From Antedon mediterranea (taxonomy: Eukaryota > Echinodermata > Crinoidea > Comatulida > Antedonidae), in the NCBI RefSeq assembly GCF_964355755.1, contig NC_092674.1:31608001-31672000 (forward strand): DNA of 64,000 nucleotides, given 5' to 3'. Made by a program: the position numbers and the translations under genes. The number at the start of each line of letters is the position of its first letter. Within the stretch, counting starts at the first letter, position 1. The notes under the pieces were generated by a model. The model was not told the DNA's origin. It searched no databases and worked only from the letters and a program-made list of their open reading frames with translations. Positions 4,051-52,200 of this stretch are shown here, piece after piece.

Positions 4051-4562
4051 AGCTGTAACTGGTAATTCGACAAACGTGCGAAATATCTATTTTGATTAAA
4101 CGCGGTATGGCATTACCAGGTACACTTTACGCTACAAACTCCTCTTAGCCACTATAATTTTAACCAACGTAATCCGAATTAATTGTATCTCATCCGATAA
4201 TTAGATAGATGAGGTATAATTCTGTCCCCAGTAAATTGAAATTCTTAGTACGGTTCACTGTTGGTCAATCGACAGTAATTTCAACATTACCATCAATATT
4301 GTTTTGAATACAAACAACCGAATACCGTCACAACCGCCATATTACGATTCTGTCGCTTGCTTCATGCTCACGATACAATGTTTTATTCACAATATTTTAA
4401 TATCTGACATTAGACCTGATACCCAGAATATGTAAAAGTCAATAGATTATGTGGATACAAAAGCTAAAAATGAGAGTGAGACGTAGTAAGCCTACTATGA
4501 TATTTTCAATACCATTTTATTATATACAAATGTACCTATTGTATTTTACATTCTTCTTGCAG

Positions 4563-28646: not shown

Positions 28647-31600
28647 ATGGATTACGAAAATCAAGGATGTCTTCACGACATGTTTATCCGACAAGCATCC
28701 AAGACACCAGATGCCATTGCTGTAGTCGCAGAAAATGACAAACAGATGACGTTTAAAGAGCTGGACAATGCTACTGATGTGTTAGCTTACAACTTACGAA
28801 CAAAAGGTGTCTGTCCAGATTCCATTGTAGGTATCTACATGGAAAAATGTATAGAATACACTACTGCATACATTGCTATATTAAAAGCAGGTAAACACAT
28901 TTTTACTAACTAACAACGAATACATATAGAATGTTCAATAATTTTTTAATAGAAATCCATTACCTTATACTTAACACCATTTGAGTTCTCAACTCAACCA
29001 TTTTGAGTTTTTACTCCACCATTTGAGTTCTCAACTCCACCATTTTGATTTTTTACTCCACCATTTGAGTTCTTAATTCACATTTTGAGTCCTTTGTTTC
29101 AAAATTGAGAATAAGCTAATTTTTAACAGATGCTTATATTAAATTATAAAATATAATGTTGTTCATTTGTCGTACGTAGGAGGAGCATATATGCCATTGG
29201 ATACCTCATACCCCCAGCACTTGGTTGCTGACATCATAATTGATGCTGAACCTGTAGCTGTGTTAACAACAAAGAAGCTTGCAAAGAATTTACAAGGTAA
29301 TTGAATTGATCACTTTATTTCAATTCAATTCAATTCAAAGCAACATTTATTTTCTCCTTTCATATACAAAATTGATTGATTGATTGATTGAATATATACA
29401 AAAATTTCGAAAGAAGAAGGTACAAGCCCAGAAAGATGAAAAACACATCTTGTGGAGGGCGTACCTATTACTGACACAGACAAAAACAATTAAGAAAAAA
29501 AAATAAAAAATAAATAATAAATAAATAAACAATAAAAAATAGACCGAGGAAAAGTTAATATTTGGAGATAAGGTGACTTTTATTAGTTTAGATATAAATG
29601 ATTTGCTAGAAACAGAGCTTAAGATTGGGAGTGGCAGATCGTTCCAAAAAGTGGGTCCGGAATACCTAATGTTTTGTTGAAAGTGGTTGGTTTTATGGGT
29701 TGGAATATGTAATTTTGAACATATACGGGTATGATGATAATGAATTGAAGAATTAGGAGTGAACATGGAGCAAAGATGTTTGGGAAGGTTAGAATTCGTA
29801 CGTAGGAGGAGCATATATGAAAATGAAAATTCCATACAAACAAAAATTAATACAAAACGGAAATCAAACTAAAATAGGATTTTTTCCCATTTAGTGAAGA
29901 GATTTGAATATCGTAACAGATAGTTTGCAGTGCACCTAACAAGATCATTTTCACTATTCACAACTCTTAATCTAATGTTAGTAATTAATGGACATTTGTG
30001 ATTGAGAAAATTGAAATTTTTGAAAGATTTTTAATTGAGATAATTAAAGGGAAAGATGTGGAAGTGTTCCCTTACAAGTGTATTTAATATGTGTGTAAAT
30101 CTAATAATAGTAGATTGAGTTGGAATAAAGTTGAATCAGTAAGGTACCCTGGTTGTAGGTAAATGTTGTGTAATAATATTATTGGTTTTCTCTCTTAAAA
30201 CAGAGTGAAATCTCTTCTTAAAAGCTAGTGATAATTCAAATTCTATTGTACTTAGTTGTGTACAGGTAGATTGTTTTTGTCATTCAAAGTGATTTTGAGG
30301 GCTTATCTGAAATATGTACAGTAAAGATCTGATCTTTGACCTTGCTGAAAGGGGTGATATTTATCATTGATTACAAAGATTTATTTAAAACGTGAAATGA
30401 TAAAAAGAACAAAAATTAATTTGTAGTTATACACATTTTGATTCACTTTATCTTTAAATATTTACATAAGCAGTAACAATGTACAGTAGTTTTGACTTTG
30501 TCATTGACCCTGACATGCTACTAATGTACATTACTATGCATGCTGTTGGCTTCTTATCAGAAATATGAAATCTTATTCTAATGCAATGCAAGCAAAGTAC
30601 TTGCATTAGTGGATTTAATAAAACTATATTTATTACTGTAGTCATCAGCTATATGATTAGAATGGAAATTGCACCATTGGTTCTATCACTTCCTATTAGA
30701 AATTATATATGTAACCACGTCTCCTGACTCAATATATTAGACATTTAAATAAATAAATTTAGTGTAGCACATTAAATTATTAGATTTTCATTTTAACAGA
30801 TTCTTTAGAAATTATTTTAAATCTAGTTTTAGTTATAAAATGTAGTATTCTAACAGTGTGTGCTCCTTAAGAAACACAGATGTATGTGTATTTTATTAGT
30901 TTTGTAAATAAAAGTAATGTTTATGTTAATGTATACTTAGGTGCAAAGAATGCGATTCTTCTTGAAGAAGGGTGGATTGACCGAATAAAAGCAGAAAATT
31001 CCAAAGTAGTGCTTACTGAACAAAAACCAACAACTCTGGATAACCTAGCTTACGTAGTATACTCATCAGGAACTACTGGAAAACCAAAAGGTATTTTTTA
31101 TGAGTTGTATTTACCTAGATGAAAACAACAGTTCATTTCTTAATAAGCGATTATGTTAAATAAACGTGTTACAGTAATAACATTCTCAAATTTATTAATA
31201 TGCAGCCATCTTTTTCTGTTTAAGGTATTATGTGTCCACATCGAGGTGCTGTCTTCTCTTATACCTGGCGACATCAAAACTATTCATTTGACCCAGATGA
31301 ACGAGTTGCATCAAACGTCTTTTTTGTATGGGAAATGTTTCGGTCACTGTTGAAAGGTATAGATAATATTGTGTAGTGTATTCAGTCTTTTTTAAAACCT
31401 TTTCAAGCAATTCTAAATAAACGTTTTTGTTTTTTTGTAGGAATACCACTATACATAATACCAGATAATGTAATCTATGATCCACCACTGCTGCTAGAAT
31501 TCCTAAGAAAGCACAAGATAACAAGGCTTTTGTTTACTCCATCGCTGTTAGAAACCGTACTAGATACAGGCAAAGCTGATCTTGCTAGTTGCCTCCAGAA

Positions 31601-34600
31601 TTTAAAGTAAGAAAACATTCAAGAATTTTTTTTTTCTTTTACATAAAAGAATAAAATGTTAAATGTATTATTCTTGGTCCTCAAGCTGAACTGGAAACTG
31701 AGGAAATTTGGATTAGTCCCTCCACGGACCCACAGCAGCCAGCAGTGCAGCGCCTACTGAGGTAATTTGGATTAGGCCCTCCACGGACCCACAGCAGCCA
31801 GCAGTGCAGCGCCTACTGAGGTAATTTGGATTAGTCCCTCCACGGACCCACAGCAGCCAGCAGTGCAGCGCCTACTGACGTAATTTGAATTAGGCCCTCC
31901 ACGAACCCACAGCAGCCAGCAGTGCAGCGCCTACTGAGGTAATTTGAATTAGGCCCTCCACGAACCCACAGCAGCCAGCAGTGCAGCGCCTACTGAGGTA
32001 ATTTGAATTAGGCCCTTCACGAACCCACAGCAGCCAGCAGTGCAGCGCCTACTGAGGTAATTTGGATTAGGCCCTCCAGGGACTCACAGCAGTCAGCAGT
32101 GTAGTGCCTACTGAGGTAATTTGAATTAGGCCCTCCACGAACCCACAGCAGCCAGCAGTGCAGCGCCTACTGAGGTAATTTGAATTAGGCCCTCCACGAA
32201 CCCACAGCAGCCAGCAGTGCAGCGCCTACTGAGGTAATTTGAATTAGGCCCTCCACGAACCCACAGCAGCCAGCAGTGCAGCGCCTACTGAGGTAATTTG
32301 GATTAGGCCCTCCACGGACCCACAGCAGCCAGCAGTGCAGCGCCTACTGAGGTAATTTGGATTAGGCCCTCCACGGACCCACAGCAGCCAGCAGTGCAGC
32401 ACCTACTGAGGTAATTTGGATTAGGCCCTCCACGGACTCACAGCAGTCAGCAGTGTAGTGCCTACTTAGGTAATTTGGATTAGGCCCTCCACGGACCCAC
32501 AGCAGCCAGCAGTGCAGCGCCTACTGAGGTAATTTGGATTAGGCCCTCCACGGATCCACAGCAGCCAGCAGTGCAGCGCCTACTGAGGTAATTTGGATTA
32601 GGCCCTCCACGGACCCACAGCAGCCAGCAGTGCAGCGCCTACTGAGGTAATTTGGATTAGTCCCTCCACGGACCCACAGCAGCCAGCAGTGCAGCGCCTA
32701 CTGAGGTAATTTGGATTAGGCCCTCCACGGACCCACAGCAGCCAGCAGTGCAGCACCTACTGAGGTAATTTGGATTAGGCCCTCCACGGACCCACAGCAG
32801 CCAGCAGTGCAGCGCCTACTGAGGTAATTTGGATTAGGCCCTCCACGGACACACAGCAGCCAGCAGTGCAGCGCCTACTGAGGTAATTTGGATTAGTCCC
32901 TCCACGGACCCACAGCAGCCAGCAGTGCAGCGCCTACTGAGGTAATTTGGATTAGTCCCTCCACGGACCCACAGCAGCCAGCAGTGCAGCGCTTACTGAG
33001 GTAATTTGGATTAAGCCCTCCACGGATCCACAGCAGCCAGCAGTGCAACGCCTACTTCTTTAAACATAAAATGCCTCAAATGTATATTAAAAAAACAAGT
33101 AGTGGCATTTTGCTATTTTTTAGTGAGTTGATGTATGCATGTTAACAAATGAATATTTGTTTTCTTTTAGAATTATCTGGTTGTGTGGTGAAGTAGTGAC
33201 CAATGGGTTGAGGGATCGGATTTTGGAAACCTTACCATCGATACAGCTTTTGAATCTGTACAGTATTTCTGAATGTCATGATGTTGCTGTTAGTAACCTT
33301 TCACTAGACAAGAAAACTGAGGTACCTATAATGTAGCTAAGAGCTACTTGTAACATACCCATACTTTAAAATGAATCCTCAATGATAATGATTCTTTTTA
33401 TTTTTTTCTCTTAGACAGCAGATAGTAAACGCAAGTTTTGTCCTGTCGGTAAACTATTACAAGGTGTTCAGGTGACCATACTGGATGATCAATTTAATGT
33501 CCAGCCAGTAGGATCTCCGGGAGAGGTACAAGCATCCTTTACATTTTATAAACAACTCTAACCAACTTAACAATCTACAAAAAATGATAGAGAATAAGAT
33601 ATGAATGCAATATTGCACAGTAACCACTTACTGTATGTACTGTAATTAGATATGTTTGTTGTTTTGAATGAGTGAAAGCCTTAATTATTTTCTCACCATC
33701 ATTCAGATTTATGTATCGGGTCCTACATTAGCCAGAGGATACATTAAGCGACCTGAACTGAATGCTAAGAGATTTATCAATCGTCCAGCTAGTTTGCCGG
33801 CATCACTGGGGGAAAAGTTTTACCGTACTGGCGATTGGGGCTACATCCTGTCAGATGGTAACTTAGAAATCTGTGGACGTTGTGATTCTATGGTGAAGAT
33901 TCGTGGATACAGTATTGAAATTCAGGTAATAAAATATTCTGCAATTACTTATCATTTTATAGCAATCAAACATTATTAATCCATTATACTGCTTATTAAA
34001 CATTTATTTAAAACACTGTATCTTGTATAATCCTCTTTACCTGTAGGCTGTGGAATCAGCCCTGCTACAACTGCCTATGGTCAGTACTTGTGTGGTGCTG
34101 GTCCAGGGCAATGAAGGGGAGGATAAGTTTATGGTAGCCTATGTAGTACCAGAAGGCGAAACCACAAGGAAAGAGGTTCGAGCTGAACTGAAGACCAGAC
34201 TCCCAAATTTTATGATTCCTTCTTATTTTGTCTTCCTCTCAAGGTAGGTAAAGTTATTTTCTACATAGAATTTTGTAAATTGTCAATAATGTTATCATCT
34301 TACTTAAAATATTTCCTTCTACATATTTGCACAAAGAGGATAGATCTGACAATCTGAATTGGTTTAATATGTTTTTCTAAACTACCATGTATGTAAGAGT
34401 AATTTGTTTTTGCTCTTTAGTATTCCTATTTTAGCAGCATCAGGGAAGTTAGATAAGAAGGCCTTGCCACCATTTAGATCTGAGAAACAATTAAATGGTG
34501 AGCAGGATTGCACACCTTCAACTGAATTTGAGAAGAAACTTGCGGCTATTTGGTGTGGAATTCTTCAGTTTAAAACAGTTGATGTACAGGATAATTTCTT

Positions 34601-35099
34601 TGATCTTGGTGGGTAAGTACTGAATCTTGAAAATAAATATTTAACAATTTTAATACTTATAAATCTTAAAAATTGGGATCTTGGTGGGTAAGTACCATTT
34701 GAACAATTTTAAATACTTCTCTTTAAATCTTAACAATTGAGAATTGTCTTTGTAGGTAATAACTTTTATACACACTTGTTTTTTTTGTGTATGTCTTTTG
34801 TTTTACATTTTCTGCTCTATAAGCATTTCTACATTGTACCCCATAATTTTTTATACCTATGCCTTTTGTTTGTTAACATCTTTGATTGGCTGATTTGTGT
34901 TATTATGTAATTTTATGACTTATCCTTTGTTACAATTCTTCACCTGATGATGGACTACTGTATGCCGTCGTGTTAATAGATATTATTGAGGAAGTTTTAA
35001 TTTTGATTTTTTTTCTATCTACCCTGCCTAATGAAGCTCTTTGATTTTATTAGGTTATATGCATGATATGCATATAACCTCTTGATTCTGTCAAAATCT

Positions 35100-35134
<35 letters not shown>

Positions 35135-38100
35135 TTCTTTCCTTAGCACTATTTTGTCCGTGCATTATCTTGGCATCAGTTTAATCTAGCTAAGTCAAGT
35201 TTTCAGAGTATATTCCTCATGGCCAGGAATCGATGTGGTTATATTTTCACGATGCGTAATCAAAAATTACGCGGTCTACGCGCGATTTTACGAAATCACG
35301 TTTTTAATCATATCTTCACAAGCATGAATCACAATTAAACAAAATTTGGTACTCATAAATTTCAGGTCATATTTCATCATATGGCAATAAAATTACATGC
35401 GTAGCGCATATAACGCTTGCGTACGCGCGCTTAAAATGTTCAAAATTGTCAAAATTTATTTTCGATGAAATTAGAGTACGTTTCAGGCAATTTTAAGCGT
35501 TTAAAAAATTGCCATGAGTGCGCAGATTTTTGCACGTGCACTGCGCGTTAAACGTTACTGCGCACTCTTTTTGCCCGATTTCTGTTTTACAATCTTTCAT
35601 TAATAATATCATCATATTTGATTCAGGTTTCAACTCGAAATTGCGTTATACGAGCACGTCAAAAGTGACTGGCTACGCACGTATAAGTTAACAAAATGGT
35701 GAAAATATGCTAAATTTTCAAATTAATATATATCGTCAGAATGCAGGGGAACACCTATTTTTTATTTTATTTTCTTGAAGTGTATGTATCATATGTATGA
35801 TTTATTATCAAATAAAGAGAACAAAAGTTGATTAAGTCATCATTAATTGCATATTAAATTTAAAAAAAATAATTTCGACAATCGAACAAATTATGACATT
35901 TTCTTAGGCCAAAATAACAAACTTAACATTAACTTTCTTCCTTCAAAAATTCATATATTAAAGTTAAAAGTATGTAGTTTGACAGTGCATCATTTGTATA
36001 CATTTTAAAGATGTCATCATAGTAAAAAAATATAATTCATTTCGGTATGTAATAATCTATTTGCATCAAAGTGGTTACTGCATAGTAAATACACGGAGGA
36101 ATTTTTCTACAACTTTTAGTCAGTTGTATACGGCTCGGTGGTTTGTGCTCGTGTCTATGGCATTCAAGGTACCGAGATCGAGTCTCACCTTGGGAAACGA
36201 AATAAGATTTTTTTTTTATTATCCGTATTGTTTGTTCAAATTTATTTCTTAGTGTATAGATTATACACATGATTTATAATGAAATCTAGATAAAAATTAA
36301 CTTATGTCTTTATTATTATGTAACAACAAATGTGGTTTATGACATTATACGCATATGGATCTTTGATCGGATTGTGATACCGGCTATGGTGTTCGCGTTA
36401 GCAAGGTCCTGTCATATATTATAAATAATTAAAGATTCTGAGAAAATCAATCAATCAATATATCTTTTAAAAATCAATTATCTTTATTTAAATCAATGCA
36501 TATAACCAATAATTCGTCATAGTGACGAATTAAATCTAGTTAACTTTTATAACTATTTCATGTTTTAAGGCATTCTCTGTTGGCAGCAAGACTACTAAAC
36601 AAAATTCAAGAAACATTTTGTGTAAAGCTGTCAGTGAGTGATCTGTTCAACTACCCTACCATTACAAGTATGGCACAACTGTTGGAAGAATGTAAAGAAA
36701 AGAACCTTCACTCAAGGTGTTTATCTCCAGGCACCTTCTATCTGACATGTTTTACAATACATCTTCATAATCCCACTCTTCCCTTCTATCTGACATGTTT
36801 TACAATACATCTTCATAATCCCACTCTTCCTTTCTATCTGACATGTTTTACAATACATCTTCATAATCCCACTCTTCCCTTCTATCTGACATATTTTACA
36901 ATACATCTTCATAATCCCACTCTTCCCTTCTATCTGACATGTTTTACAATACATCTTCATAATCCCACTCTTCCCTTCTATCTGACATGTTTTACAATAC
37001 ATCTTCATAATCCCACTCTTCCCTTCTATCTGACATGTTTTACAATACATCTTCATAATCCCACTCTTCCCTTCTATCTGACATGTTTTACAATACATCT
37101 TCATAATCCCACTCTTCCCTTCTATCTGACATGTTTTACAATACATCTTCATAATCCCACTCTTCCCTTCTATCTGACATGTTTTACAATACATCTTCCT
37201 AATCCCATTCTTCCTTTCTATCTGACATGTTTTACAATACATCTTCATAATCCCACTCTTCCCTTCTATCTGACATGTTTTACAATACATCTTCATAATC
37301 CCACTCTTCCCTTCTATCTGACATGTTTTACAATACATCTTCATAATCCCACTCTTCCTTTCTATCTGACATGTTTTACAATACATCTTCATAATCCCAC
37401 TCTTCCCTTCTATCTGATATGTTTTACAATACATCTTCATAATCCCACTCTTCCCTTCTATCTGACATGTTTTACAATACATCTTCATAATCCCACTCTT
37501 CCCTTCTATCTGACATGTTTTACAATACATCTTCATAATCCCACTCTTCCTTTCTATCTGACATGTTTTACAATACATCTTCATAATCCCACTCTTCCTT
37601 TCTATCTGACATGTTTTACAATACATCTTCATAATCCCACTCTTCCCTTCTATCTGACATGTTTTACAATACATCTTCATAATCCCACTCTTCCTTTCTA
37701 TCTGACATGTTTTACAATACATCTTCATAATCCCACTCTTCCCTTTCTATCTGACATGTTTTACAATACATCTTCATAATCCCACTCTTCCCTTCTATCT
37801 GACATGTTTTACAATACATCTTCATAATCCCATTCTTCCTTTCTATCTGACATGTTTTACAATACATCTTCATAATCCCACTCTTCCTTTCTATCTGACA
37901 TGTTTTACAATACATCTTCATAATCCCACTCTTCCTTTCTATCTGACATGTTTTACAATACATCTTCATAATCCCACTCTTCCCTTCTATCTGACATGTT
38001 TTACAATACATCTTCATAATCCCACTCTTCTCTTCTATCTGACATGTTTTACAATACATCTTCATAATCCCACTCTTCCTTTCTATCTGACATGTTTTAC

Positions 38101-41100
38101 AATACATCTTCATAATCCCACTCTTCCCTTCTATCTGACATGTTTTACAATACATCTTCATAATCCCACTCTTCCTTTCTATCTGACATGTTTTACAATA
38201 CATCTTCATAATCCCACTCTTCCCTTCTATCTGACATGTTTTACAATACATCTTCATAATCCCACTCTTCCTTTCTATCTGACATGTTTTACAATACATC
38301 TTCATAATCCCACTCTTCCCTTCTATCTGACATGTTTTACAATACATCTTCATAATCCCACTCTTCCCTTCTATCTGATATGTTTTACAATACATCTTCA
38401 TAATCCCACTCTTCCCTTCTATCTGACATGTTTTACAATACATCTTCATAATCATTATATAACCAGTGTGTAATACAGATCTGATGCATTCACATAAAAA
38501 GATAACTTTGCAAGTATTAAATATTGTTATTTAGCCTTTTAATAGTTTTTATTTTCAAAATGTGTTGTATATACAGTATTTCTCATTACTTTATTTATAA
38601 CATTCCTTGTTGTATCTGATTATATAATTATGTAAATTGACAAACACACAATTGACTGGACATTACTACTTTTTTCTTGTTATTGTATCAATTGGTGATT
38701 TTTTTTTGTATCCTTATCATTTAAGGAGTTTTGAAGTTGTTCATCCAAGCATTGACCTGGTAGCAGAGGTCAAGAACCATGATCAAGGAATCATGCGGCT
38801 TGATATGCAACTACGTGCATTCTGGCGTTCCATCCAATATGGTGACCGCTGGAAAAGAGGGCGTGTGTTACTTACTGGAGCTACTGGTTTTCTGGGAACA
38901 TTTATTCTGCAAGAACTTTTGCTAAATACACAGGTATGTTATTCTTATCACACTTGTATAATTACTAACAAGCGAGCACATTTTATTGAGTTAGTTTGAT
39001 AAAATGTTATATCTGTAGTACAGTACATGTTGTGTTGAGTTTAATATCCCATGATGGGAATGTTATACACAGAGAAATTGAAGTTGCTACAAAACGTTAT
39101 ATGTGATTATTAATATTAGTCTCTATTTTTTAAAATTGTAAATATTTAAGAATTTGTAATTATTAATCTTATCTTTTGATCTTTGTGCATTTTTTATAGT
39201 AATTTTAAATTTAATTAATTATACAGTAATTATTACTGTTTCATAGGCCTTAATGTGTTTTTTCTTCGTTTAACTTTGTTTATGTGAATTATCATTTTCA
39301 TATGTAAGCTCTTATTTCAACTATGAGTTGTATTTTGAGTCTTTTTATACCGATTAAATAAAAAAATAAATAAATATTTAAAATGGCTAACATGTTCCTC
39401 TAAATGCTAAGGTACTTCATAGCAAGTTGAAGTATAGGTTGTTAAAAGTGTTTATTGCAATATACAAGTTGTGTTTGGGATTAAGTTATAAGTAAGTTAG
39501 TAAGTTGTAAGTTATACCCAGCAATCAAAATGTTCGAAGTTTGATCTTTATTTTATGAGGTACTGTAGGTGTAAGTGAGAGATAACATGCCCTCCACGCC
39601 CTACCCTAAAATTAACTAAGCTTTAATAAATGGAAGACGGCTTCTATATGTTATAAACTTGATTTTATTCCCCCCATGTTATTTATATACACCACTGCAG
39701 TGGTATTGTCAATTTTTATTAAAATGTTATTTAAATAATAAATATCAATGTTATTTAATTTTGTTTCGTTATTATTTACCCAAACAAGCTGGTCGTTGAG
39801 GCCAGAGTTTCTTTAACGATCACCGTAGCAAAATAAAATAAGAAGATTAAACGAGAACTTACCTGTTCGAAGTTTGATCTTTATTTTATAGGTAAAAATG
39901 TAAGTGAGAGGTAACTCTTACATGACTTGGCATTTTTTATATGTCATTAAAGAAACATAATTGTTATGATAAATAACAATAATTTGTTTATGGAATCTAT
40001 TGTTGATGCATCCAGCATAGATATCATCATTTTCTATACTGAATTCTTTTCAGACACACATTTATTGCCTTGTGCGGAGATTTCGAGATATGACCGGTGA
40101 ACAAAGACTGCTTGCATCACTCAAACAGTTTGGAATTTGTAAGGAATCTTCCCAGAAAAACAAAGTGATGGAATACTTTGATACACGAGTAACAGCAATT
40201 ACAGGTAAACAAGCCAGCTGATATTGATTTAAACCTGTGCTGCTAATAGTTTGATAATAAAGTAGAAGTATCCATTTGAAATGTTTGCATAGGATAAACA
40301 CAAACTATTCAGTTTCAGTGTGATGAGTAAGATTTGTTCAATGCTGCAGAGAAAAGTTTTGAAGATCTCACATGTACGCAAGTGCATTATTATTATTGGT
40401 TATTATTATTATTATTATTATTATTTATTCTGTGTATTATTATTATATGGTTTTAGATTAAGAATCCTATTTTAGTGTGATTTTCAGTTTTATATTAGTT
40501 TTTGTTGTATATATGGATCTATTCATTCTAAAATAAAGTGATCAATTCAATTCAATTATCAGGTGATGTTTCTCTTAGAAATATGGGAATGAGTGAAGAG
40601 GATTACACTTACCTTAGCTATGAGGTAACTTGTACTTAATTATTTTGTTTCAACAAGTTTAAAAGTAATTTTAAAATCATATAAAAACATATTTGATGGC
40701 AGGACTTGATTAACATTCCAGGGTCCAGGTTAAATGTTCTAATTCATCATCTGTGTACACTATCAAACTAATATAACCCAAATATGGTAGTGATACACTT
40801 AAATATGGTAGTGATATGACATCATCATGTACGTTCATATATGGGAACATTACATTTTTTTGTCACATAAAGTGTAGACAGAGATTTAATTTATTATATT
40901 TTATAAATTCTTAGATTGACTTTATAGTACATGCTGCTGCCTATGTAAATCTCATCTATCCATATGATGCCCTACACGGAACTAACGTATTAGGTACCCA
41001 GAATACTGTCCTCTTTTCTTGTACGAATAAGATCAAACCACTCCATCATATAAGGTAACATAACAATTTTCATGTCATAAAAGCTAATTGAAAAGTTCCA

Positions 41101-44100
41101 ATAATTTATTTTGGATGTCTAATAATAAATTAAACTGCTTTATTAGAGGGTTGAAAGATGTGACAAGTATTAGCATATTTGCTACTATTTGCTTGCCTCC
41201 TCTCTTTATTAACTAAACACCTTCATATTAGATTATTGACTGTGCTATTCTTGCCTGATTGCTAAGCATCATAATAAGTGTTTGCTTACCTCGCTTTTAT
41301 AATATAGTTCAGTTTAAGTTGATTGCATTGTTGTACAAGTTTTGTTTAAATACATAAAATATTTGAGTTTGTGTTTAAGAATTATTACATAAACATAACA
41401 TAAATTCAAACAATTGTGTTTTTGGTTTTTGTCGTTATTTATATCTTAACAAATCTTTATAAAAATGTTGTTTTACTAAGTACTAATAGTGTGTTCCCGC
41501 ATAACACTACTAATTGTATGGAAAATGATGACATGCTAAAATATGCCTCGTTACTAGCCGATGGGTATGGACAGACTAAGTGGGTTGCAGAACAAATTGT
41601 GCTGAAAGCCAAATCCCGTGGTCTTCCTGTTGTCATTTATAGACTTGGTAAGTTGTATTCCGGACACCAAAACCTGTCTTCCGAGCTGACTACAGCGTTA
41701 GCATTCTCGTCACCAGGTGCACTGCTGCCTTTAGCATTCTTCCGTGTTGACCTAGTACTGGAACTAGCCATTGAATTGATGAATGACAGTAGAAATAGCG
41801 GAATAGCAGTAGCAATATGGCAAAGTAGATGAACAAACTACCGTAGGACTAGTAGTGTCCGAGTCAAAGTGATAGCTGGTTGAATCAGCCACAACAATGG
41901 CGAAATAATTGAGTTCAATGAAAACCGGGAGCGAGGTTTTAGACACGTCCGTTCACCATGAGTTCTGAGAACTAAGCATTGCTTGTATCCTTAGGCAAGA
42001 CACTTTACTTACATTTGCCTCTCTCCACCCAGGTGTATAAATGGGTACCGGTTAGATCAAGATAACCTTGCACTGATTACTAGCTGCATTATTATGAGAG
42101 TATGTTTCCATAAATGTTGATCCAAAAAATGAATGGGGTAATAATATTCAGCGCGTTAAGAGCTTGCTTATATGCGCTATATAAGAAAGAACTTATTATT
42201 ATTACTAACAAACCCATTCACTATCCCATCCCCCACTATTTGATCTACAGTATGCTCTGCCTACACTCAATCTTGTTAGATATTATTTATAACATTTAGG
42301 CAATCTTTCCGGTGACTCCACTACTGCTTACTGGAACCCATTAGACTCAAACCTGTTGGCTATCCAAGGAATTGCTGCCACTCACACCGCTCCTGACATT
42401 GATTGGCAAATTGAGATGACACCAGTAGATTTTGTAAGCAGTGTTATTGTGAACATGACACAGAATTTGATGTGTTGTGTTGGCAAGGTTTTCCATATTG
42501 TTAACCCAAACCGTGTTGATGCAAAGTGAGTATAATAATAATGAATTAATATTTATTTTTTCTTCTTTACGTTTATTTAATACTATATTCAGAAATATAC
42601 AAGATTATTGAAAAGTTTATTTAAAGTATGGTATAGAGTTTATATACATTATTCAATGTGCTTAATCCTGTTTCTTTTTAGTTTGCTGTATCAGACAATG
42701 AGAAATCTAGGGTATCCCATAAAAGTTGTTAGTTTTGAAGAATGGGGTGAAGAGATTGAATTACTAAGCAATGGATCTGAAGAGACCAGGATGCTAGGCC
42801 AAGCACTTGATGGCATCAATAAGTAAGCTTTTAAGTACCAACCACTTCATTGTTTTAGAGTAAGTCAGCCTGATTGAAAGTTAAACTGATTGAAAGTTAA
42901 AATGACATACATTTATTTTCTTATTTATTTTCATCCTTTTGTTGACAGAAATCCAGAATTCTTTCAAGACAAGTCGCAATTTGATATGAGATATTTAAGG
43001 GAAATGCTAGATGAATGGCAGATTCAATACCCTACAGTAGATGTGAAACAAATAAGAATGTACTTAAAACATCTTATAGCTAGAAAAGTTCTTAAATCAC
43101 CAAATCCACGACATAGTGGTAAGTACTTTTAGCATAGTGCATTCATTTTTTATATTCTAATTATATTTAAATGCTTATATATAAAGTAATTTATTGCTCT
43201 ATAGAAAATAAAAAAATTAATGAGCAATCAAATCTTTAGTAAAACCAAGTACAGTAGTTCAATAGATTTGAATCTATTGTTAGCTGTTTAGCTTTTTAGA
43301 TATTTTTACTATTTCATTCAATTCAAAACTGAAATATACATATTGAAACTAAACTGATAAAACTAGGATAGTGAGCTATTATCATTACTAGTTGAAATAA
43401 TGGTGTAACAGAGGTGGATTTAGAGAGAAATTAAAATTACCCCTTATTCATTTTAAACTCTATAATTAGCAAAATAATATTTAATGATTAGAAATTAAAT
43501 TAATGATTAAAAAGGTCATTTACTTTGTGAATTGTGACATTCTATTAAATTAATTATGTAATAAATATTCATTTTCTATATATGAAAGTATAAATTATAA
43601 ATTATTATGACTATGACTCATGCAGAAGTACTATTCATTTATCAAACTGAATATTCCCCAGAATTATTTTACTAGATCATAATAGGAGTCAATTCTACAT
43701 GTTATCATTATGCTATGTATATGGAGTAGCAATTGCATAAAATACAGCAGTGTATGCACTGTAGTATTGACTAAAAGCTACATTTGATTTAAAAGTCTAG
43801 GCTAATTGATGTGAAGAGGATTTATAAATCTAATGGAATGGGATTTATAAATCTAATGGAATGGGATTTATAAATCTAATGGAATGGGATTTATAGAAAC
43901 ACATTATTAAAGTCCTATGTATTAAAAGTAATTTGCTTTAAGTGTATAAATGTATTTGTAAGGATTTTTTATAGTATTACATACACTCACATAACGTATT
44001 GTTCATTTTCTGTTTTACAGTAGTACATATACAGAAAACAAAATGAAGCATTTTAAACAAACTTGATTTTGTTTTCCTGTCTATGATTTTTTTTACCTGT

Positions 44101-46550
44101 TTTATGTGATTTGATCAAATAAATAAATGAATGTGTTTCCATAGAAAATACACCATTACTTGGCCAAGTTGCTATAGTGACAGGGGCATCAAGTGGTATT
44201 GGAGCAGCAATTGCAACCCACCTTGCAAATGCCGGGGCATCAGTTGCAATAGCAGCACGAAGAGAAGACAAACTCCAGAAAGTTAAAGAGGAAATTGAAG
44301 CAAATAGTGGAACAGTTTTTGTGATGAAAACAGATGTTACAAAAAGAGAACAAGTAAGTCACCAATATTTATTTTATTGATATTCAATTTTATTTGGTAA
44401 ATAAAGTGAAATGTACATTGCTGGTCACACATAACAATATATGATGGAACTGTTTACTCACACAATCTGTATTTGTTTTAGTGTATGCATTGTGTAAAAA
44501 TAAATAATGCTATGTATAAAAGCTTTTCTTGTTGTTTATTGGATGTTGTTAACATTAACCCCAAGGGGATCATTACTAGAAAACATAATGAGTTTCTATA
44601 AACTGACCTTGGTAAATCCATGTGTCACTGGGATTTTAATATTTCAAATCTGTAATCGTATTTTTATGTTCCTAGTACTACATAATATATAAATCATTAA
44701 CATGTAAGATATTTTGAGCTCATAATGAACGTATAGGAAGAAGTCTTAAAATTATGTTATAGTTTGATTCAAAGAAAAGTAGCATAAATATGTTACATTA
44801 TTAAAATACATTCAACATCACAAGGACCATTTTCACTTATGTATTCATAATTTTGAAATAATTTATTTCTAAATACCTTGTGGCAAGATTATTTAAGTTA
44901 AACAATTAAACGAGTTTGACTCAAGTTACTCAATAGTTACTTATCAAATTTAGCCTACGGTATTAAACGACTTGTATGGATGATTTCCAGGTCGTTTGCT
45001 TCAGTTTTTAGGCCATGCTGCTAATGACTGACATGCTGATGACATTACTCAATGCACTTTCATTTCATCTACCTCGTTTACATCGCTTAAACTCAAGTTA
45101 GCTCCTCGCTAACATTTATGCATATATAATAGTGTATGAATACATCAATACATGAATATATAAAAAGTGTATTTAGAACTGTATGTTAATGTAAAAATAC
45201 AACAAAACAGCATTGTACAACTTAAGCTCTGTTCTACACCATCAAACTAGTTTGAAAAAAAAGTGTGAGGTCAATTATGGTAGTGATATGTCCAAATATG
45301 GTAGTGATATGACATCATCATGTCCATATATGGGCACATCACATTTTGTTTGTCACATAAATTTTGATAGTGTAGACAGAACTTTAGAAATATATCCTTT
45401 AGAACAAAAAAAACATTTAATTCAGTAATTCAAGGTTTGTTTTATTTAAAATAATAACATTTAACAATTACTGATTATTATAATGACAATGATGGTAAAG
45501 AATTGTCTCTTCAATAAAAGGTGCTGAGGATGATTTGTATATATTTTATGGTCCCATACATTTATATCCTCTCTTTTAGGTTAAGTGTTTAGTTACTGAA
45601 ACAGAGAAGCACTTAGGACCAGTAGACATCATAGTGAACAATGCTGGCATTATGTATTATACCCCAATGAGGAAAATACAGGAAGATCAATGGGAGAAGA
45701 CGATTGATATTAACTGCAAGGTACAATACATTTTGTTTCAATATCATTTTGTCCTAAATTGATTACGTATGTTTTAGGTTTTATCTACTAAGTAAAGCTT
45801 GCCAGTAAGAAAAGTGTTGTACAGAAACGAAGCAATATAATAGTTATAAGACATTTTTCTTTTTTATTCTGACTTCAAGCCAAACATCTTAGTAAAGCTT
45901 GCTTTAAATTAACATGTTAGCAAACTGTTGTTGTTTTTCACAGGGTGTAGTTAATGGGATTGGAGCTGTACTTAAAGGCATGTTAGAAAGAAAGAAAGGA
46001 CACATTGTCAATATGTCATCAAATGCTGGAAGAGCTGTAAGTATTTATGTGATTATAGTATTAAAAAAAACATTACCCGAAGATTGTAAATTGAAAATTA
46101 TAAATACAAATACATAAACAATAAGTTGTAATGTTTGCAGGCGTTTGCTGGTCTTGCTGTTTACACAGGAACAAAGTTCTTTGTTGAAGGTGTCTCATCT
46201 TCACTACGGAAAGAGATTGCAGATAGTGGAGTGAAAGTAACATGTATTCAACCGGGTGATGTTGTTACTGAGCTGTTAGCTCATAGTACAGACAATGAGG
46301 TACGTTAAAAATGGAACCTTTAATGCAGTGACTGAATAAAGGTATAACATATAACAAATATAAACCAACATTTTTGTTTGCTATTAACATTGTTCATTTC
46401 TAGGCTAAATCTGAGTATGCTGATAATAGTGGAGAAAAGGTTTTAGATCCGAATGATATAGGCAGAGCTGTTGTATATGCTGTAAGTCAGCCAGCACATG
46501 TCGCTATTAATGAAATTTTGATTGAACCTAGACATGCTCCAGCAGTCTGA
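28647..46550 (+). CDS. NRPS-like carboxylate reductase, A-T-R-SDR architecture (ATRR-like), 1279 aa
   Basis: Multidomain enzyme expected to adenylate a carboxylic acid, load it on a 4'-phosphopantetheine arm, release it reductively as an aldehyde and reduce that to an alcohol. A domain (1-510): KAGGAYMPLD, A3 SSGTTGKPKG (162-171), A5 NLYSISEC (298-305), A7 YRTGDWG (396-402), A8 GRCDSMVKIRGY (414-425), A10 Lys505 in SGKLDKKALP. Carrier: DNFFDLGGHSLLAA, Ser562. Thioester reductase: TGATGFLG (659-666), Tyr825/Lys829 in GYGQTK, then GDSTT. Short-chain dehydrogenase: TGASSGIG (1043-1050), NNAG (1120-1123), Ser1173, Tyr1186, Lys1190. No condensation domain. Architecture and size resemble fungal ATRR (glycine betaine reductase); yeast Lys2-type proteins lack the last domain. 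Annotation pipelines may call such genes linear gramicidin synthase-like. The substrate is inference only. The start ATG sits directly after a splice acceptor. Confidence 0.93.
28978..29092. repeat. Short direct repeat, about 2.5 copies
   Basis: CCATTTGAGTTCTCAACTC alternates with TTTTTACTCCACCATTT in units of about 45 bp inside the first coding intron of the enzyme gene. Diverged. Confidence 0.6.
29300..29860 (-). mobile_element. 5'-truncated non-LTR retrotransposon (LINE) fragment
   Basis: The minus strand encodes the C-terminal end of a LINE ORF2: HYHHTRICSKLHIPTHKTN, then NIRYSGPTFWNDLP, matching the usual H-TR-L ... G-WN-LP end of CR1/Jockey/L2-type reverse transcriptases. A 3' UTR follows with ATTG repeats and a tail of AATAAAGTGATCAATTCAATT at about 29300-29335, only a few bases from the donor of exon 29180-29296. 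No reverse-transcriptase core; not autonomous. Confidence 0.75.
29861..30940. other. Remainder of enzyme intron 2
   Basis: About 1.1 kb of AT-rich sequence between the LINE fragment and exon 3. No feature recognised. Confidence 0.5.
31697..33056. repeat. 59-bp minisatellite, about 23 copies
   Basis: Tandem unit of 59 bp containing GAGGTAATTTGGATTAGGCC, a pyrimidine-rich CCCTCCACGGACCCACAG and CAGCCAGCAGTGCAGC, filling most of enzyme intron 31607-33170. Copies differ by a few substitutions (GGATT/GAATT, GGACCC/GAACCC). GC content is well above its surroundings. Each unit holds acceptor-like CACAG and donor-like GAG|GTAATT 26 nt apart. Confidence 0.95.
35047..36512. mobile_element. Non-autonomous DNA transposon candidate in the carrier-domain intron
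   Basis: Intron 34613-36569 contains a block whose ends are imperfect inverted repeats: TTATTAGGTTATATGCATGA at 35047-35066 and the complement of TTATTGGTTATATGCATTGA at 36493-36512. Beside the left end is a (TTTA)n run (about 35100-35135), and 35270-35700 is dense in CpG and words such as TGCGTACGCGCGC, unlike the AT-rich surroundings. A tRNA-like stretch with an ATCGAGTCTC B box lies near 36120-36200. No transposase frame is visible. Confidence 0.45.
36727..38453. repeat. 48-bp minisatellite, about 36 copies
   Basis: Unit of 48 bp with the core TCTATCTGACATGTTTTACA starts about 10 bp after the donor of exon 36570-36716 and fills most of that intron. Copies are very similar (CCC/TTT variants, one 1-bp insertion near 37742). 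Because 48 is a multiple of three and the unit lacks stops, long frames run on both strands; the plus frame is continuous with the upstream exon for about 1.1 kb. These frames are not genes. Confidence 0.96.
38934..40053. other. Enzyme intron with a duplicated segment
   Basis: Contains two copies of a segment with GTTCGAAGTTTGATCTTTAT and then GTAAGTGAGAG at about 39531-39590 and 39867-39918. A stretch ending GATTAAATAAAAAAATAAAT near 39355-39377 resembles a LINE 3' end. Nothing else recognised. Confidence 0.5.
40386..40562 (+). mobile_element. ATT microsatellite and LINE 3' tail beside a splice acceptor
   Basis: An (ATT)n run (40386-40445) is followed by about 110 bp ending AATAAAGTGATCAATTCAATT, the same tail as the LINE fragment at 29300. 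The tail runs into the CAG acceptor of exon 40563-40624, so it supplies the last intron bases. No LINE coding sequence is present here. Confidence 0.55.
40741..40888. mobile_element. MITE-like element, copy A
   Basis: About 150 bp in enzyme intron 40625-40914, with inverted ends TCTGTGTACACTATCAAAC and its imperfect complement near AAAGTGTAGACAGAGA, and a core ATGGTAGTGATATGACATCA shared with the element at 45221. No coding sequence. Confidence 0.6.
41055..41480. other. Enzyme intron, no feature
   Basis: AT-rich 426-bp intron before the exon that encodes the thioester-reductase Tyr/Lys pair. Nothing recognised. Confidence 0.6.
41836..42206 (+). mobile_element. SINE-like element with conserved central domain
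   Basis: Intron 41648-42299 carries CTTAGGCAAGACACTTTACT, then CTCTCCACCCAGGTGTATAA and ATGGGTACCGG, a central block seen in several invertebrate SINE families, and ends in GCGCTATATAAG plus an ATT-rich tail. The 5' head lacks clear A/B boxes, so the 5' limit is approximate. The open frame running from the upstream exon into this intron is not coding: the phase-1 junction 41647/42300 restores RLGNLSGDSTT. Confidence 0.6.
43119..44144. other. Intron between the thioester-reductase and dehydrogenase parts
   Basis: About 1 kb that separates the R domain from the C-terminal SDR domain. It holds a 23-bp repeat (GGATTTATAAATCTAATGG core, about 3.3 copies, 43819-43894) and nothing else recognised. 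Confidence 0.6.
44354..45579. other. Enzyme intron, 1.2 kb
   Basis: AT-rich intron inside the SDR domain. Its only recognised feature is the MITE-like copy B at 45221-45389. Confidence 0.6.
45221..45389. mobile_element. MITE-like element, copy B
   Basis: About 170 bp with terminal inverted repeats: TCTGTTCTACACCATCAAAC at the left and its imperfect complement TTTTGATAGTGTAGACAGAA at the right (about 80% match). The core GGTAGTGATATGACATCATC is shared with copy A at 40741. Non-coding. Confidence 0.68.
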
Positions 46551-49270: not shown

Positions 49271-52200
49271 ATGTGGTTGTTTTTCTACCCTTTCATCGTA
49301 CTATTGATGTATGTTATCCAGTCTATACATTGCCAAGATTCCAGCAATGCATCGCTGTGTAAGAGCGAATGTCCAGAGCCATATAATCCCGATTTTGCTA
49401 GGGCAGGTAGGTTCATTTATTATTGTTTTAAAAAGACATGGAGGGAACTAATACTAGGCCTACACTGTAAAAGTGGACGTGATTTTGTTTTTATAGGCCT
49501 AGTTTATAATAACATATTATATATATATTTTACCGTACCCATTATTTTGTTAATATATTTAGGCATATTCATCCATAGGTTTATTAGTTTCATTTGGACT
49601 TTTTGTGTTGCAATTGATTTTAGATTGAACATGATCTAAGCAAACTATCTCAGTTGTACACACAGAGACATAGTAATATTTACTGGCATTGAACTAAATT
49701 GAGTGTTACAGTTTAGTCAACCATACACATCAGACATAATAGTAATATATTAGCATAAAAGTTATTATCATAACTGTGTTTGTACTACACTAAGAGACCT
49801 CTTCGTTAAACACGGGTGTTATTCAAATTAAATACTACATTTAGCTAACAATTTGAAATAGCCTTTTTGGAAATTATTATTAGGGCCAACTAAATTATGA
49901 CAGATAGTCGGATAGTGGTAATAGCGTATAGGCAATGTCTTTCTGTGACATTTTGAAGGATTTACAGCGCCTTATAATCATCAGAGATCACAGAATGTTA
50001 CACGTTTCATGAATAATTTATTTAAATTACCGATAAGGTTACCACGCCGAGCTGTGCCATGCATACAGTACTATTAGTTATAATTTTAACCACACATTTA
50101 CATAAAAAGCATTAAAAAATTAATTTGTTAACATTGTGTTGTTTCCACATTCAATGGTCCATATGAATGAATGATTGAAATAAATCTGTCTTTACAATGA
50201 TGTTAAACCAATAGATTTGTCCTTTACAGGAATAATTCTTCATGTCGGCTCAAGTAAAGCCAAATTTGATGGTAACTTAGTGTTGAACTGTAGTTTCGCA
50301 AGAGCAATACTGGAACATAACCAAGTGTTTGACGATAAGCGAGCGCCCTTCACAACCATGGCAGTGTTACGATACACAGACGTAAATAACCCCCGTGAAT
50401 TTGAAAGGGAATGTAAGTATAATAATGGCAGTGTTACGATACACAGACGTAAATAACCCCCGTGAATTTGAAAGGGAATGTAAGTATAATAATGGCAGTG
50501 TTACGATACACAGACGTAAATAACCCCCGTGAATTTGAAAGGGAATGTAAGTATAATAATGGCAGTGTTACGATACACAGACGTAAATAACCCCCGTGAA
50601 TTTGAAAGGGAATGTAAGTATAATAATGGCAGTGTTACGATACACAGACGTAAATAACCCCCGTGAATTTGAAAGGGAATGTAAGTATAATAATGGCAGT
50701 GTTACGATACACAGACGTAAATAACCCCCGTGAATTTGAAAGGGAATGTAAGTATAATAATGGCAGTGTTACGATACACAGACGTAAATAACCCCCGTGA
50801 ATTTGAAAGGGAATGTAAGTATAATAATGGCAGTGTTACGATACACAGACGTAAATAACCCCCGTGCATTTGAAAGGGAATGTAAGTATAATAATGGCAG
50901 TGTTACGATACACAGACGTAAATAACCCCCGTGAATTTGAAAGGGAATGTAAGTATAATAATGGCAGTGTTACGATACACAGACGTAAATAACCCCCGTG
51001 AATTTGAAAGGGAATGTAAGTATAATAATGGCAGTGTTACGATACACAGACGTAAATAACCCCCGTGAATTTGAAAGGGAATGTAAGTATAATAATGGCA
51101 GTGTTACGATACACAGACGTAAATAACCCCCGTGAATTTGAAAGGGAATGTAAGTATAATAATGGCAGTGTTACGATACACAGACGTAAATAACCCCCGT
51201 GAATTTGAAAGGGAATGTAAGTATAATAATGGCAGTGTTACGATACACAGACGTAAATAACCCCCGTGAATTTGAAAGGGAATGTAAGTATAATAATGGC
51301 AGTGTTACGATACACAGACGTAAATAACCCCCGTGAATTTGAAAGGGAATGTAAGTATAATAATGGCAGTGTTACGATACACAGACGTAAATAACCCCCG
51401 TGAATTTGAAAGGGAATGTAAGTATAATAATGGCAGTGTTACGATACACAGACGTAAATAACCCCCGTGAATTTGAAAGGGAATGTAAGTATAATAATGG
51501 CAGTGTTACGATACACAGACGTAAATAACCCCCGTGAATTTGAAAGGGAATGTAAGTATAATAATGGCAGTGTTACGATACACAGACGTAAATAACCCCC
51601 GTGAATTTGAAAGGGAATGTAAGTATAATAATGGCAGTGTTACGATACACAGACGTAAATAACCCCCGTGAATTTGAAAGGGAATGTAAGTATAATAATG
51701 GCAGTGTTACGATACACAGACGTAAATAACCCCCGTGCATTTGAAAGGGAATGTAAGTATAATAATGGCAGTGTTACGATACACAGACGTAAATAACCCC
51801 CGTGAATTTGAAAGGGAATGTAAGTATAATAATGGCAGTGTTACGATACACAGACGTAAATAACCCCCGTGAATTTGAAAGGGAATGTAAGTATAATAAT
51901 GGCAGTGTTACGATACACAGACGTAAATAACCCCCGTGAATTTGAAAGGGAATGTAAGTATAATAATGGCAGTGTTACGATACACAGACGTAAATAACCC
52001 CCGTGAATTTGAAAGGGAATGTAAGTATAATAATGGCAGTGTTACGATACACAGACGTAAATAACCCCCGTGAATTTGAAAGGGAATGTAAGTATAATAA
52101 TGGCAGTGTTACGATACACAGACGTAAATAACCCCCGTGAATTTGAAAGGGAATGTAAGTATAATAATGGCAGTGTTACGATACACAGACGTAAATAACC

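What the first reader, a model, noticed from the sequence alone, without database searches (positions are those of the whole stretch)
28647..46550. A metazoan A-T-R-SDR (ATRR-type) carboxylate reductase gene
The sequence shows a single intact 1279-aa frame across 24 exons with A, carrier, thioester-reductase and short-chain dehydrogenase domains, all with catalytic residues. Animals are known for few NRPS-like enzymes (Ebony, the AASDH family). From established work, the fungal ATRR of Aspergillus nidulans has this order and about this size and reduces glycine betaine through betaine aldehyde to choline. Inference: this animal gene could do a similar two-step reduction, which would suit a marine animal with high betaine osmolyte, or act on another carboxylate.
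Basis: partly seen in the sequence, partly recalled or inferred. Interest (0 to 1): 0.85.

Follow-up and report, generated by a model that had tools for sequence, protein, structure and literature searches.

The report
Animal betaine-to-choline reductase gene
An intact animal gene encodes a four-part enzyme that most likely turns the salt-protecting compound glycine betaine back into choline; the enzyme type is already known from fungi and parasitic nematodes, but bacterial relatives found here carry it as two neighbouring genes and some sit beside betaine genes, which strengthens the reading.

Summary
Window 28647-46550 encodes one 1279-residue frame in 24 exons, all introns GT-AG, with A, T, R and SDR domains, on an animal chromosome; no second A-T-R copy was found. 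It is best read as an ATRR, a glycine betaine reductase. Its adenylation pocket lacks the amino-acid-binding aspartate, the loop there is five residues shorter, and an acid stands at GrsA position 330; a short loop without that aspartate and an acidic pocket residue are in print for the betaine-activating ATRR domain. A motif scan of 84,980 prokaryote species gave 20 loci, 19 with relatives. In four, the SDR is a separate neighbouring gene that groups with the animal SDR (100/98), so the animal gene looks like the fused form of a bacterial gene pair. Four of the 19 lie beside betaine transport or synthesis genes. Nematode ATRRs are already in print (PMC11050029), so this is a new member of a known kind. 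Activity, transcript, fungal comparison and host species were not established.

The parts
28647..28890 (+). exon 1, start codon, A domain aa 1-81
   Evidence: N-terminus lines up with bacterial relatives
29180..29296 (+). exon 2, A domain
30941..31090 (+). exon 3, A domain with YSSGTTGKPKG
31225..31356 (+). exon 4, A domain, shortened pocket loop SNVFF-VWEMF (GrsA D235 lost)
31441..31606 (+). exon 5, A domain, L at GrsA 278
33171..33321 (+). exon 6, A domain, W299/C301/L322/D330/V331 (motif NLYSISECHDVA at 33253-33288)
33415..33525 (+). exon 7, A domain
33707..33925 (+). exon 8, A domain with YRTGD
34047..34243 (+). exon 9, A domain C-terminal part
34421..34612 (+). exon 10, A10 lysine and start of T domain
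36570..36716 (+). exon 11, T domain (carrier serine of GGHSL just after the exon 10/11 junction)
38726..38933 (+). exon 12, start of R domain, TGATGFLG
40054..40204 (+). exon 13, R domain
40563..40624 (+). exon 14, R domain
40915..41054 (+). exon 15, R domain
41481..41647 (+). exon 16, R domain with STNS and YGQTK
42300..42525 (+). exon 17, R domain
42682..42822 (+). exon 18, R domain
42949..43118 (+). exon 19, end of R domain
44145..44353 (+). exon 20, start of SDR domain, TGASSGIG; no ATG before it in its frame
45580..45720 (+). exon 21, SDR domain, NNAGIMYY
45944..46036 (+). exon 22, SDR domain, catalytic serine region NMSS
46141..46299 (+). exon 23, SDR domain, YTGTK
46404..46550 (+). exon 24, SDR C-terminus NEILIEPRHAPAV and stop

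Best explanation
The gene encodes an ATRR, a single-chain NADPH-dependent carboxylate reductase for a quaternary-ammonium acid, most likely glycine betaine. Inferred cycle: the A domain adenylates betaine with ATP and loads it on the phosphopantetheine arm of the T domain; the R domain releases it by reduction as betaine aldehyde; the C-terminal SDR domain reduces the aldehyde to choline. Shown here: intact frame, domain order, catalytic motifs, a non-amino-acid pocket (lost D235, short loop, acid at position 330), kinship of both halves with bacterial A-T-R and SDR gene neighbours, and betaine genes beside four of 19 pocket relatives. Inferred: substrate, products, cofactor and role. The likely role is to draw choline back out of the betaine pool; the same genome has a choline dehydrogenase-type gene for the opposite direction and a phosphopantetheinyl transferase candidate that could activate the T domain.
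For: Domain order and intact frame. Pocket: the GrsA reference is identical to 1AMU 192-528; aligned to it the animal protein has no residue at 235/236, then W239, L278, W299, C301, L322, D330, V331, K517. PMC7496086 (one passage) states that ATRR-A has a shorter hydrophobic loop in place of the one with D235, and an acidic pocket residue. The short loop, which the search motif did not select, is in 19 of 19 motif relatives and 1 of 9 control A domains. With 43 motif and loop columns removed, the animal A domain, 17 relatives and the control L003 still separate from the other 8 controls at 100/100. SDR: the animal domain groups with 4 of 4 bacterial partner SDRs at 100/98 against 9 control SDRs, six of them from the 12 plasmid hits listed for the animal SDR; the Facilibium SDR scores 197 bits against the animal SDR and at most 166 summed bits in the eight plasmid rows listed for it (rows ranked by coverage times identity). 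Context: ProV over cut-off (528.9 vs 444) and a cut ProW beside the A-T-R gene in L018; a glycine/sarcosine N-methyltransferase over cut-off and a sarcosine/dimethylglycine N-methyltransferase-like gene beside the A-domain gene in L021, L027 (= L030) and L028. Best solved relative of the SDR is clavaldehyde dehydrogenase, by established knowledge an aldehyde reductase in vivo. Own genome: betA-type choline dehydrogenase over its equivalog cut-off, two AASDHPPT_N matches over cut-off. Precedent: MiATRR (PMC11050029).
Against: No activity, expression or metabolite data. Of the relatives with betaine synthesis genes, the two whose domains were scanned (L021, L027/L030) are A-T-KS polyketide synthases, not reductases, and L021, L022, L027 and L028 have I or V at 299 and D at 322 where the animal has W and L. 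The animal has C at 301 where 17 of 18 relatives have N. The ProVW case is one locus, and its ProW match is below cut-off because the gene is cut. The sarcosine/dimethylglycine methyltransferase match is below its cut-off in all three loci. By plain identity, generic plasmid SDRs (44-46% in the best rows) exceed the bacterial partner SDRs (40-42%). The trees carry warnings: long branches (L001, L013, L023; L002a) and uneven amino-acid make-up in several rows. The PPTase model PF01648 gave no match.
Confidence: 0.77

Rival explanations
1. Same enzyme architecture and chemistry, but for another onium acid, such as DMSP, dimethylglycine, beta-alanine betaine or another betaine taken from the diet; the product is the matching amino or sulfonio alcohol.
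For: A DMSP-loading adenylation domain (BurA) is reported to share the short loop and an acidic pocket residue with ATRR-A (PMC7496086 passage); the animal pocket differs at 301 from 17 of 18 relatives.
Against: Betaine transport or synthesis genes beside four of 19 pocket relatives; the nematode ATRR protects yeast from glycine betaine (PMC11050029).
Confidence: 0.15
2. An amino acid or aromatic/fatty carboxylate reductase (Lys2-like or CAR-like) with an extra SDR.
For: Same A-T-R order; the R domain matches chains named carboxylic acid reductase weakly (73.8 bits).
Against: D235 and its loop are missing, so there is no alpha-amine anchor; R matches MxaA far better (227.9 bits); Lys2 itself was not compared.
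Confidence: 0.05
3. Two genes, A-T-R and SDR, that only look joined in the model, or an inactive relic.
For: No transcript data; the frame of exon 19 runs to a stop soon after its donor site.
Against: No ATG before the SDR glycine motif in the frame of exon 20, GT-AG sites in frame at all 23 introns, and 49% identity of the A domain to a bacterial relative with no stop in 1279 codons.
Confidence: 0.03

Closest known systems
Fungal ATRR, glycine betaine reductase of Aspergillus nidulans (primary paper not held; known here through PMC11050029 and PMC7496086)
   Same: A-T-R-SDR order; loss of D235 with a short hydrophobic loop; an acidic pocket residue
   Different: animal gene with 23 introns; full pocket code and orthology not compared because no fungal sequence is held
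MiATRR of the nematode Meloidogyne incognita (PMC11050029)
   Same: animal, A-T-R1-R2, similar length (1306 vs 1279 aa)
   Different: MiATRR has a yeast growth test, RNAi and expression data; this gene has none; sequences not compared
Bacterial A-T-R gene plus separate SDR gene in a Francisellaceae genome, Facilibium, Fangia and a gammaproteobacterial MAG (L020, L024, L026, L014; found here)
   Same: same pocket motif and short loop; SDR in one clade with the animal SDR
   Different: two adjacent genes, not fused; 32-36% identity in the A domain (L024 over part of the domain)
Desulfobacterota A-T-R proteins (L010, L018; found here)
   Same: closest intact A domains found, 48-49% identity, same pocket motif
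   Different: no SDR found beside them in the DNA fetched (for L018 only about 395 nt downstream); N301 and T322 instead of C and L
Ebony and AASDH (known animal NRPS-like enzymes)
   Same: A and T domains
   Different: no R-SDR tail; recalled, and named as single-module animal enzymes in PMC10531068; not compared here

Membership tests
ATRR (A-T-R-R glycine betaine reductase) | A, T, thioester reductase and short-chain dehydrogenase domains in one chain of about 1300 aa | tested here: met
   (gene model, no transcript); MiATRR 1306 aa in PMC11050029
ATRR (A-T-R-R glycine betaine reductase) | A-domain loop with GrsA D235 replaced by a shorter hydrophobic loop | tested here: met
   feature stated in PMC7496086
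ATRR (A-T-R-R glycine betaine reductase) | acidic residue elsewhere in the pocket | tested here: met
   D at GrsA 330; whether this is the same position as in fungal ATRR is not told
ATRR (A-T-R-R glycine betaine reductase) | ten-residue pocket code as in fungal ATRR | not testable with these tools
   no fungal or nematode ATRR sequence is held; figures are not held
ATRR (A-T-R-R glycine betaine reductase) | groups with fungal ATRR in a tree | not testable with these tools
   same reason
ATRR (A-T-R-R glycine betaine reductase) | reduces glycine betaine to choline with ATP and NADPH | not testable with these tools
   needs an enzyme assay
Bacterial carboxylic acid reductase (CAR) | R domain closest to CAR R domains | tested here: not met
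   among solved structures MxaA scores 227.9 bits, the best chain named carboxylic acid reductase 73.8
Amino-acid-activating NRPS A domain | conserved aspartate at GrsA 235 | tested here: not met
Lys2 aminoadipate reductase | groups with Lys2 in a tree | not tested
   no Lys2 sequence was fetched

The most novel reading that the evidence does not exclude
The ATRR family is not confined to eukaryotes: bacteria carry an unfused pair, an A-T-R gene plus a partner SDR gene, with the same betaine pocket, and the animal gene is the fused descendant of such a pair. Betaine-pocket A domains form a wider bacterial clade that also includes polyketide synthases which, beside glycine-to-betaine methyltransferases and a carnitine acyltransferase-family gene, would build carnitine from betaine.
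Probability: 0.6. Interest if true: 0.66.

Novelty: new member of a known kind. Interest (0 to 1): 0.52.

Why it matters
Textbook animal metabolism (recalled) runs choline to betaine one way only. An intact reductase gene makes the reverse step directly testable in another animal besides the nematodes in print. The bacterial split form gives small two-gene systems for structure and assay work, a pocket signature (short loop plus NxYSxSExHDVA) for finding candidate betaine-activating enzymes, and a lead on how the eukaryotic fusion arose.

Tried and rejected
An 18S rRNA search in the own genome, meant to help name the species, failed twice with a machine error, and COX1 gave no match. Literature searches by chromosome number and assembly size did not identify the species. 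The first genome-contig scan with the whole protein found no relative. The plasmid tblastn listed 40 of at least 5000 records, at 25-35% identity; the only two listed places with 90% or more coverage (H5, H23) consist of separate genes. I first read the single tblastn stretch in L014 (9-1277) as a fused bacterial gene; the open frames show two adjacent genes with a stop between. The viral-contig scan found none. The predicted structure of the L010 A domain was confident (mean pLDDT 86.4) and matched known A domains, but no coordinates were available to me, so no pocket geometry was measured. Plain SDR identity did not decide the kinship of the SDR half, because generic SDRs reach 44-46%; the tree and the reverse search favour it.

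Rows dropped: L009 and L019 were left out of the A-domain trees (L009 is split over two frames, and in the pocket table only its N-terminal piece was kept, so its position 330 is not shown there; L019 is cut by the end of the locus). L017, the one motif locus without an A-domain relative at the motif, has no row because it gave no A-domain match. 'Nine control A domains' means L001-L008 and GrsA; L003 has the short loop and fell inside the clade.

Full report
Observation. Open frames on the plus strand between 28600 and 47000 gave 24 coding blocks; for each neighbouring pair the best-scoring in-frame GT-AG pair was taken. The result is 24 exons, 3840 nt, 1279 aa, no internal stop, as reported. 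Pfam places AMP-binding at 15-369 (228 bits), PP-binding 535-598, NAD_binding_4 658-901 (197 bits) and adh_short 1038-1230 (201 bits). The start MDYENQGCLHDMF and the end NEILIEPRHAPAV line up with the ends of bacterial relatives, so neither end seems cut. The frame holding exon 20 (44123-44377) contains no ATG before the SDR glycine motif, which speaks against a separate SDR gene starting in that exon; a separate upstream first exon is not excluded without transcripts.

Setting. The window lies at C5:31608001-31672000 of a 354-Mb assembly in 18 contigs. Of eight neighbouring open frames scanned, two match class C GPCR (7tm_3), one ANF_receptor and one the ionotropic glutamate receptor ligand-binding domain over cut-off, one matches ANF_receptor below cut-off and three match nothing, so this is an animal chromosome and not a bacterial contaminant. 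A search of the whole genome with the protein matched the A, T and R parts only at this place; the matches elsewhere were to the SDR part, at 23-36% identity (36 of 76 candidates were scored). The species was not identified.

Relatives among solved structures. The A-T half matches canonical NRPS modules, the R domain matches the terminal reductase of MxaA best (227.9 bits, against 73.8 for the best chain named carboxylic acid reductase), and the SDR matches clavaldehyde dehydrogenase best (175 bits).

Pocket. I used the phenylalanine-activating GrsA as ruler; the fragment I recalled is identical to 1AMU residues 192-528, and its ten code positions read D A W T I A A I C K (printed before that script failed on a file name). 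Aligned to it, the animal protein has no residue at 235 and 236, then W239, L278, W299, C301, L322, D330, V331, K517; the loop before WEMF is five residues shorter. PMC7496086 (the passage shown, not the whole paper) says that the glycine betaine domain ATRR-A and a DMSP-loading domain have a shorter hydrophobic loop in place of the one with D235, and an acidic residue elsewhere in the pocket. The animal protein has both kinds of feature. The same passage is why DMSP stays a rival substrate.

Bacterial relatives. A motif taken from the animal pocket (N-x-Y-S-x-[ST]-E-x-H-D-V-A, back-translated) gave 20 loci in a scan of one genome each for 84,980 species and none in viral contigs; a form one codon shorter occurs once in the window. 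My hand estimate, with equal base frequencies, is about four exact chance matches in that collection. Nineteen of the 20 loci encode relatives of the A domain by tblastn at E 1e-4 or better, at 27-49% identity. The short loop was not part of the motif, yet it is present in 19 of 19 relatives and in 1 of 9 control A domains; the acid at 330 was selected by the motif and is no independent evidence. In a maximum-likelihood tree the animal domain, the 17 relatives kept and the Nostoc control L003 form one side of a branch at 100/100, and this stays at 100/100 when 43 motif and loop columns are removed. Closest intact relatives by identity are the Desulfobacterota proteins L010 and L018 (48.9% and 48.1% in A; 35% and 33% in R); the animal's place inside the clade is not resolved.

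Split form. In L014, L020, L024 and L026 (a gammaproteobacterial MAG, a Francisellaceae genome, Facilibium and Fangia) the A-T-R gene is followed on the same strand by a separate SDR gene of 243 aa (240 in L026, where the locus ends); taking the first start codon, the gap runs from a 16-nt overlap to 19 nt. Nine A-T-R-type loci have their downstream side in the fetched DNA (for L018 only about 395 nt of it); four of the nine have the SDR, and tblastn with the full protein found no SDR in the other five (L010, L011, L013, L018, L025). In six further loci (L009, L012, L015, L016, L019, L023) the gene is cut, interrupted by N or broken before its end. In the SDR tree the animal domain and the four bacterial partners form one clade at 100/98 against nine controls, six of them from the 12 plasmid hits listed for the animal SDR. 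The five share G[IV]MYY after the NAG region, which none of the nine controls has. Searched the other way, the eight plasmid rows listed for the Facilibium SDR reach at most 38.2% identity and 166 summed bits (the list is ranked by coverage times identity), against 40.8% and 197 bits for the animal SDR. Against this, generic plasmid SDRs reach 44-46% identity to the animal SDR, so identity alone would not have shown it, and the control set is small. No fused bacterial gene was seen in the 19 loci; PMC11050029 reports an earlier survey calling atrr genes exclusive to eukaryotes, which is not contradicted here for the fused form.

Substrate context. In L018 the A-T-R gene is divergent from ProV (528.9 bits, cut-off 444) and a cut ProW (218 bits, cut-off 439 for the full protein), the glycine betaine/proline importer. 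In L021, L027 (= L030) and L028 the A-domain gene is divergent from a glycine/sarcosine N-methyltransferase (479-485 bits, cut-off 350) and a sarcosine/dimethylglycine N-methyltransferase-like gene (377-385 bits, below the cut-off of 550), the pair that by established knowledge makes betaine from glycine. L021 and L030 encode polyketide synthases (TE, A, T, KS in the cut L021; TE, A, KS, AT, KR and two carrier domains in L030); L028 was not scanned for domains. So these loci inform on what the pocket binds, not on the reductase step. Four of 19 relatives thus have betaine genes next door; I did not measure how often such genes lie beside unrelated A domains.

Mechanism. Shown: anatomy, pocket features, kinship of both halves, context. 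Inferred: ATP-dependent loading of glycine betaine on the T domain, NADPH-dependent release as betaine aldehyde by R, reduction to choline by the SDR. The same genome holds a single-exon choline dehydrogenase match over its equivalog cut-off (753.2 vs 732.1 bits), homocysteine S-methyltransferase-type exons (this Pfam family does not separate BHMT from methionine synthase) and two AASDHPPT_N matches, while the general PPTase model gave none. So the opposite oxidation and the carrier-activating enzyme are plausible in the same animal. A cytosolic reductase that draws choline from the betaine pool is my reading of the role.

What is known. The paper on Meloidogyne incognita (PMC11050029; abstract, introduction, part of the results, discussion and figure legends read) reports A-T-R1-R2 homologues in nematodes, growth of yeast in glycine betaine, expression and RNAi, and cites the fungal work, which is not held. 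The survey of NRPSs in animals (PMC10531068; parts 1 and 2 of 5 read) treats condensation-domain NRPSs; those two parts do not describe this architecture. My searches for papers on ATRR or glycine betaine reductases in animals (listing 20 of 35, 30 of 45, 2 of 2 and 10 of 121 papers) showed no animal case but the nematode paper, and those bearing on bacterial A-T-R plus SDR betaine systems (2 of 2 listed) showed none that I recognised; I judged by titles and abstract starts, and the library is open-access only. A fungal PKS-NRPS carnitine synthase is something I recall and could not find.

Verdict. The gene is real, intact as modelled and most likely a glycine betaine reductase of the ATRR type. 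As an animal gene it is a new member of a known kind. The less expected result is the bacterial two-gene form and the betaine context of some of its pocket relatives.

Noticed in passing
L030 4340-15513 (same genome as L027); also L021, L028, L022: Filomicrobium cluster: glycine/sarcosine and sarcosine/dimethylglycine N-methyltransferase-type genes divergent from a 2452-aa synthase (TE, A, KS, AT, KR, two carrier domains) with the betaine pocket, followed by a choline/carnitine acyltransferase-family gene; L022 has the same acyltransferase family downstream. Inference: a polyketide route from betaine to carnitine.
   Followed up: partly
L018 1-1924: ProV and a cut ProW gene (glycine betaine importer) divergent from an A-T-R gene in a Desulfobacterota MAG.
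   Followed up: yes
L010 157-1464: APH-type phosphotransferase gene overlapping the end of an A-T-R gene; could act on the product, untested.
   Followed up: no
L003 1980-4985: Nostoc carneum plasmid A-T-R enzyme with the same shortened loop but serine instead of aspartate at position 330, so a different non-amino acid substrate is likely.
   Followed up: no
G000 C11:20520146-20521732: Choline dehydrogenase (betA-type) match in one exon with a 628-aa open frame, above the equivalog cut-off.
   Followed up: no
window 31697-33056 and 36734-38453: Two long minisatellites inside introns of the gene: 59-bp unit, 23 copies (intron 5) and 48-bp unit, 36 copies (intron 11).
   Followed up: no
window 50358-54913: A 67-bp unit repeated 68 times at 99% match; it overlaps an open frame at 50184-50456.
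   Followed up: no
window 4446-4766, 15075-15488, 21092-21454, 59717-60007, 63327-63647: Exons of class C GPCR-like and receptor ligand-binding genes on both sides, one an ionotropic glutamate receptor domain; the match at 59717-60007 is below cut-off.
   Followed up: partly
L016 1757-4357: The A-T-R gene in the Francisella noatunensis record appears broken into several frames.
   Followed up: no
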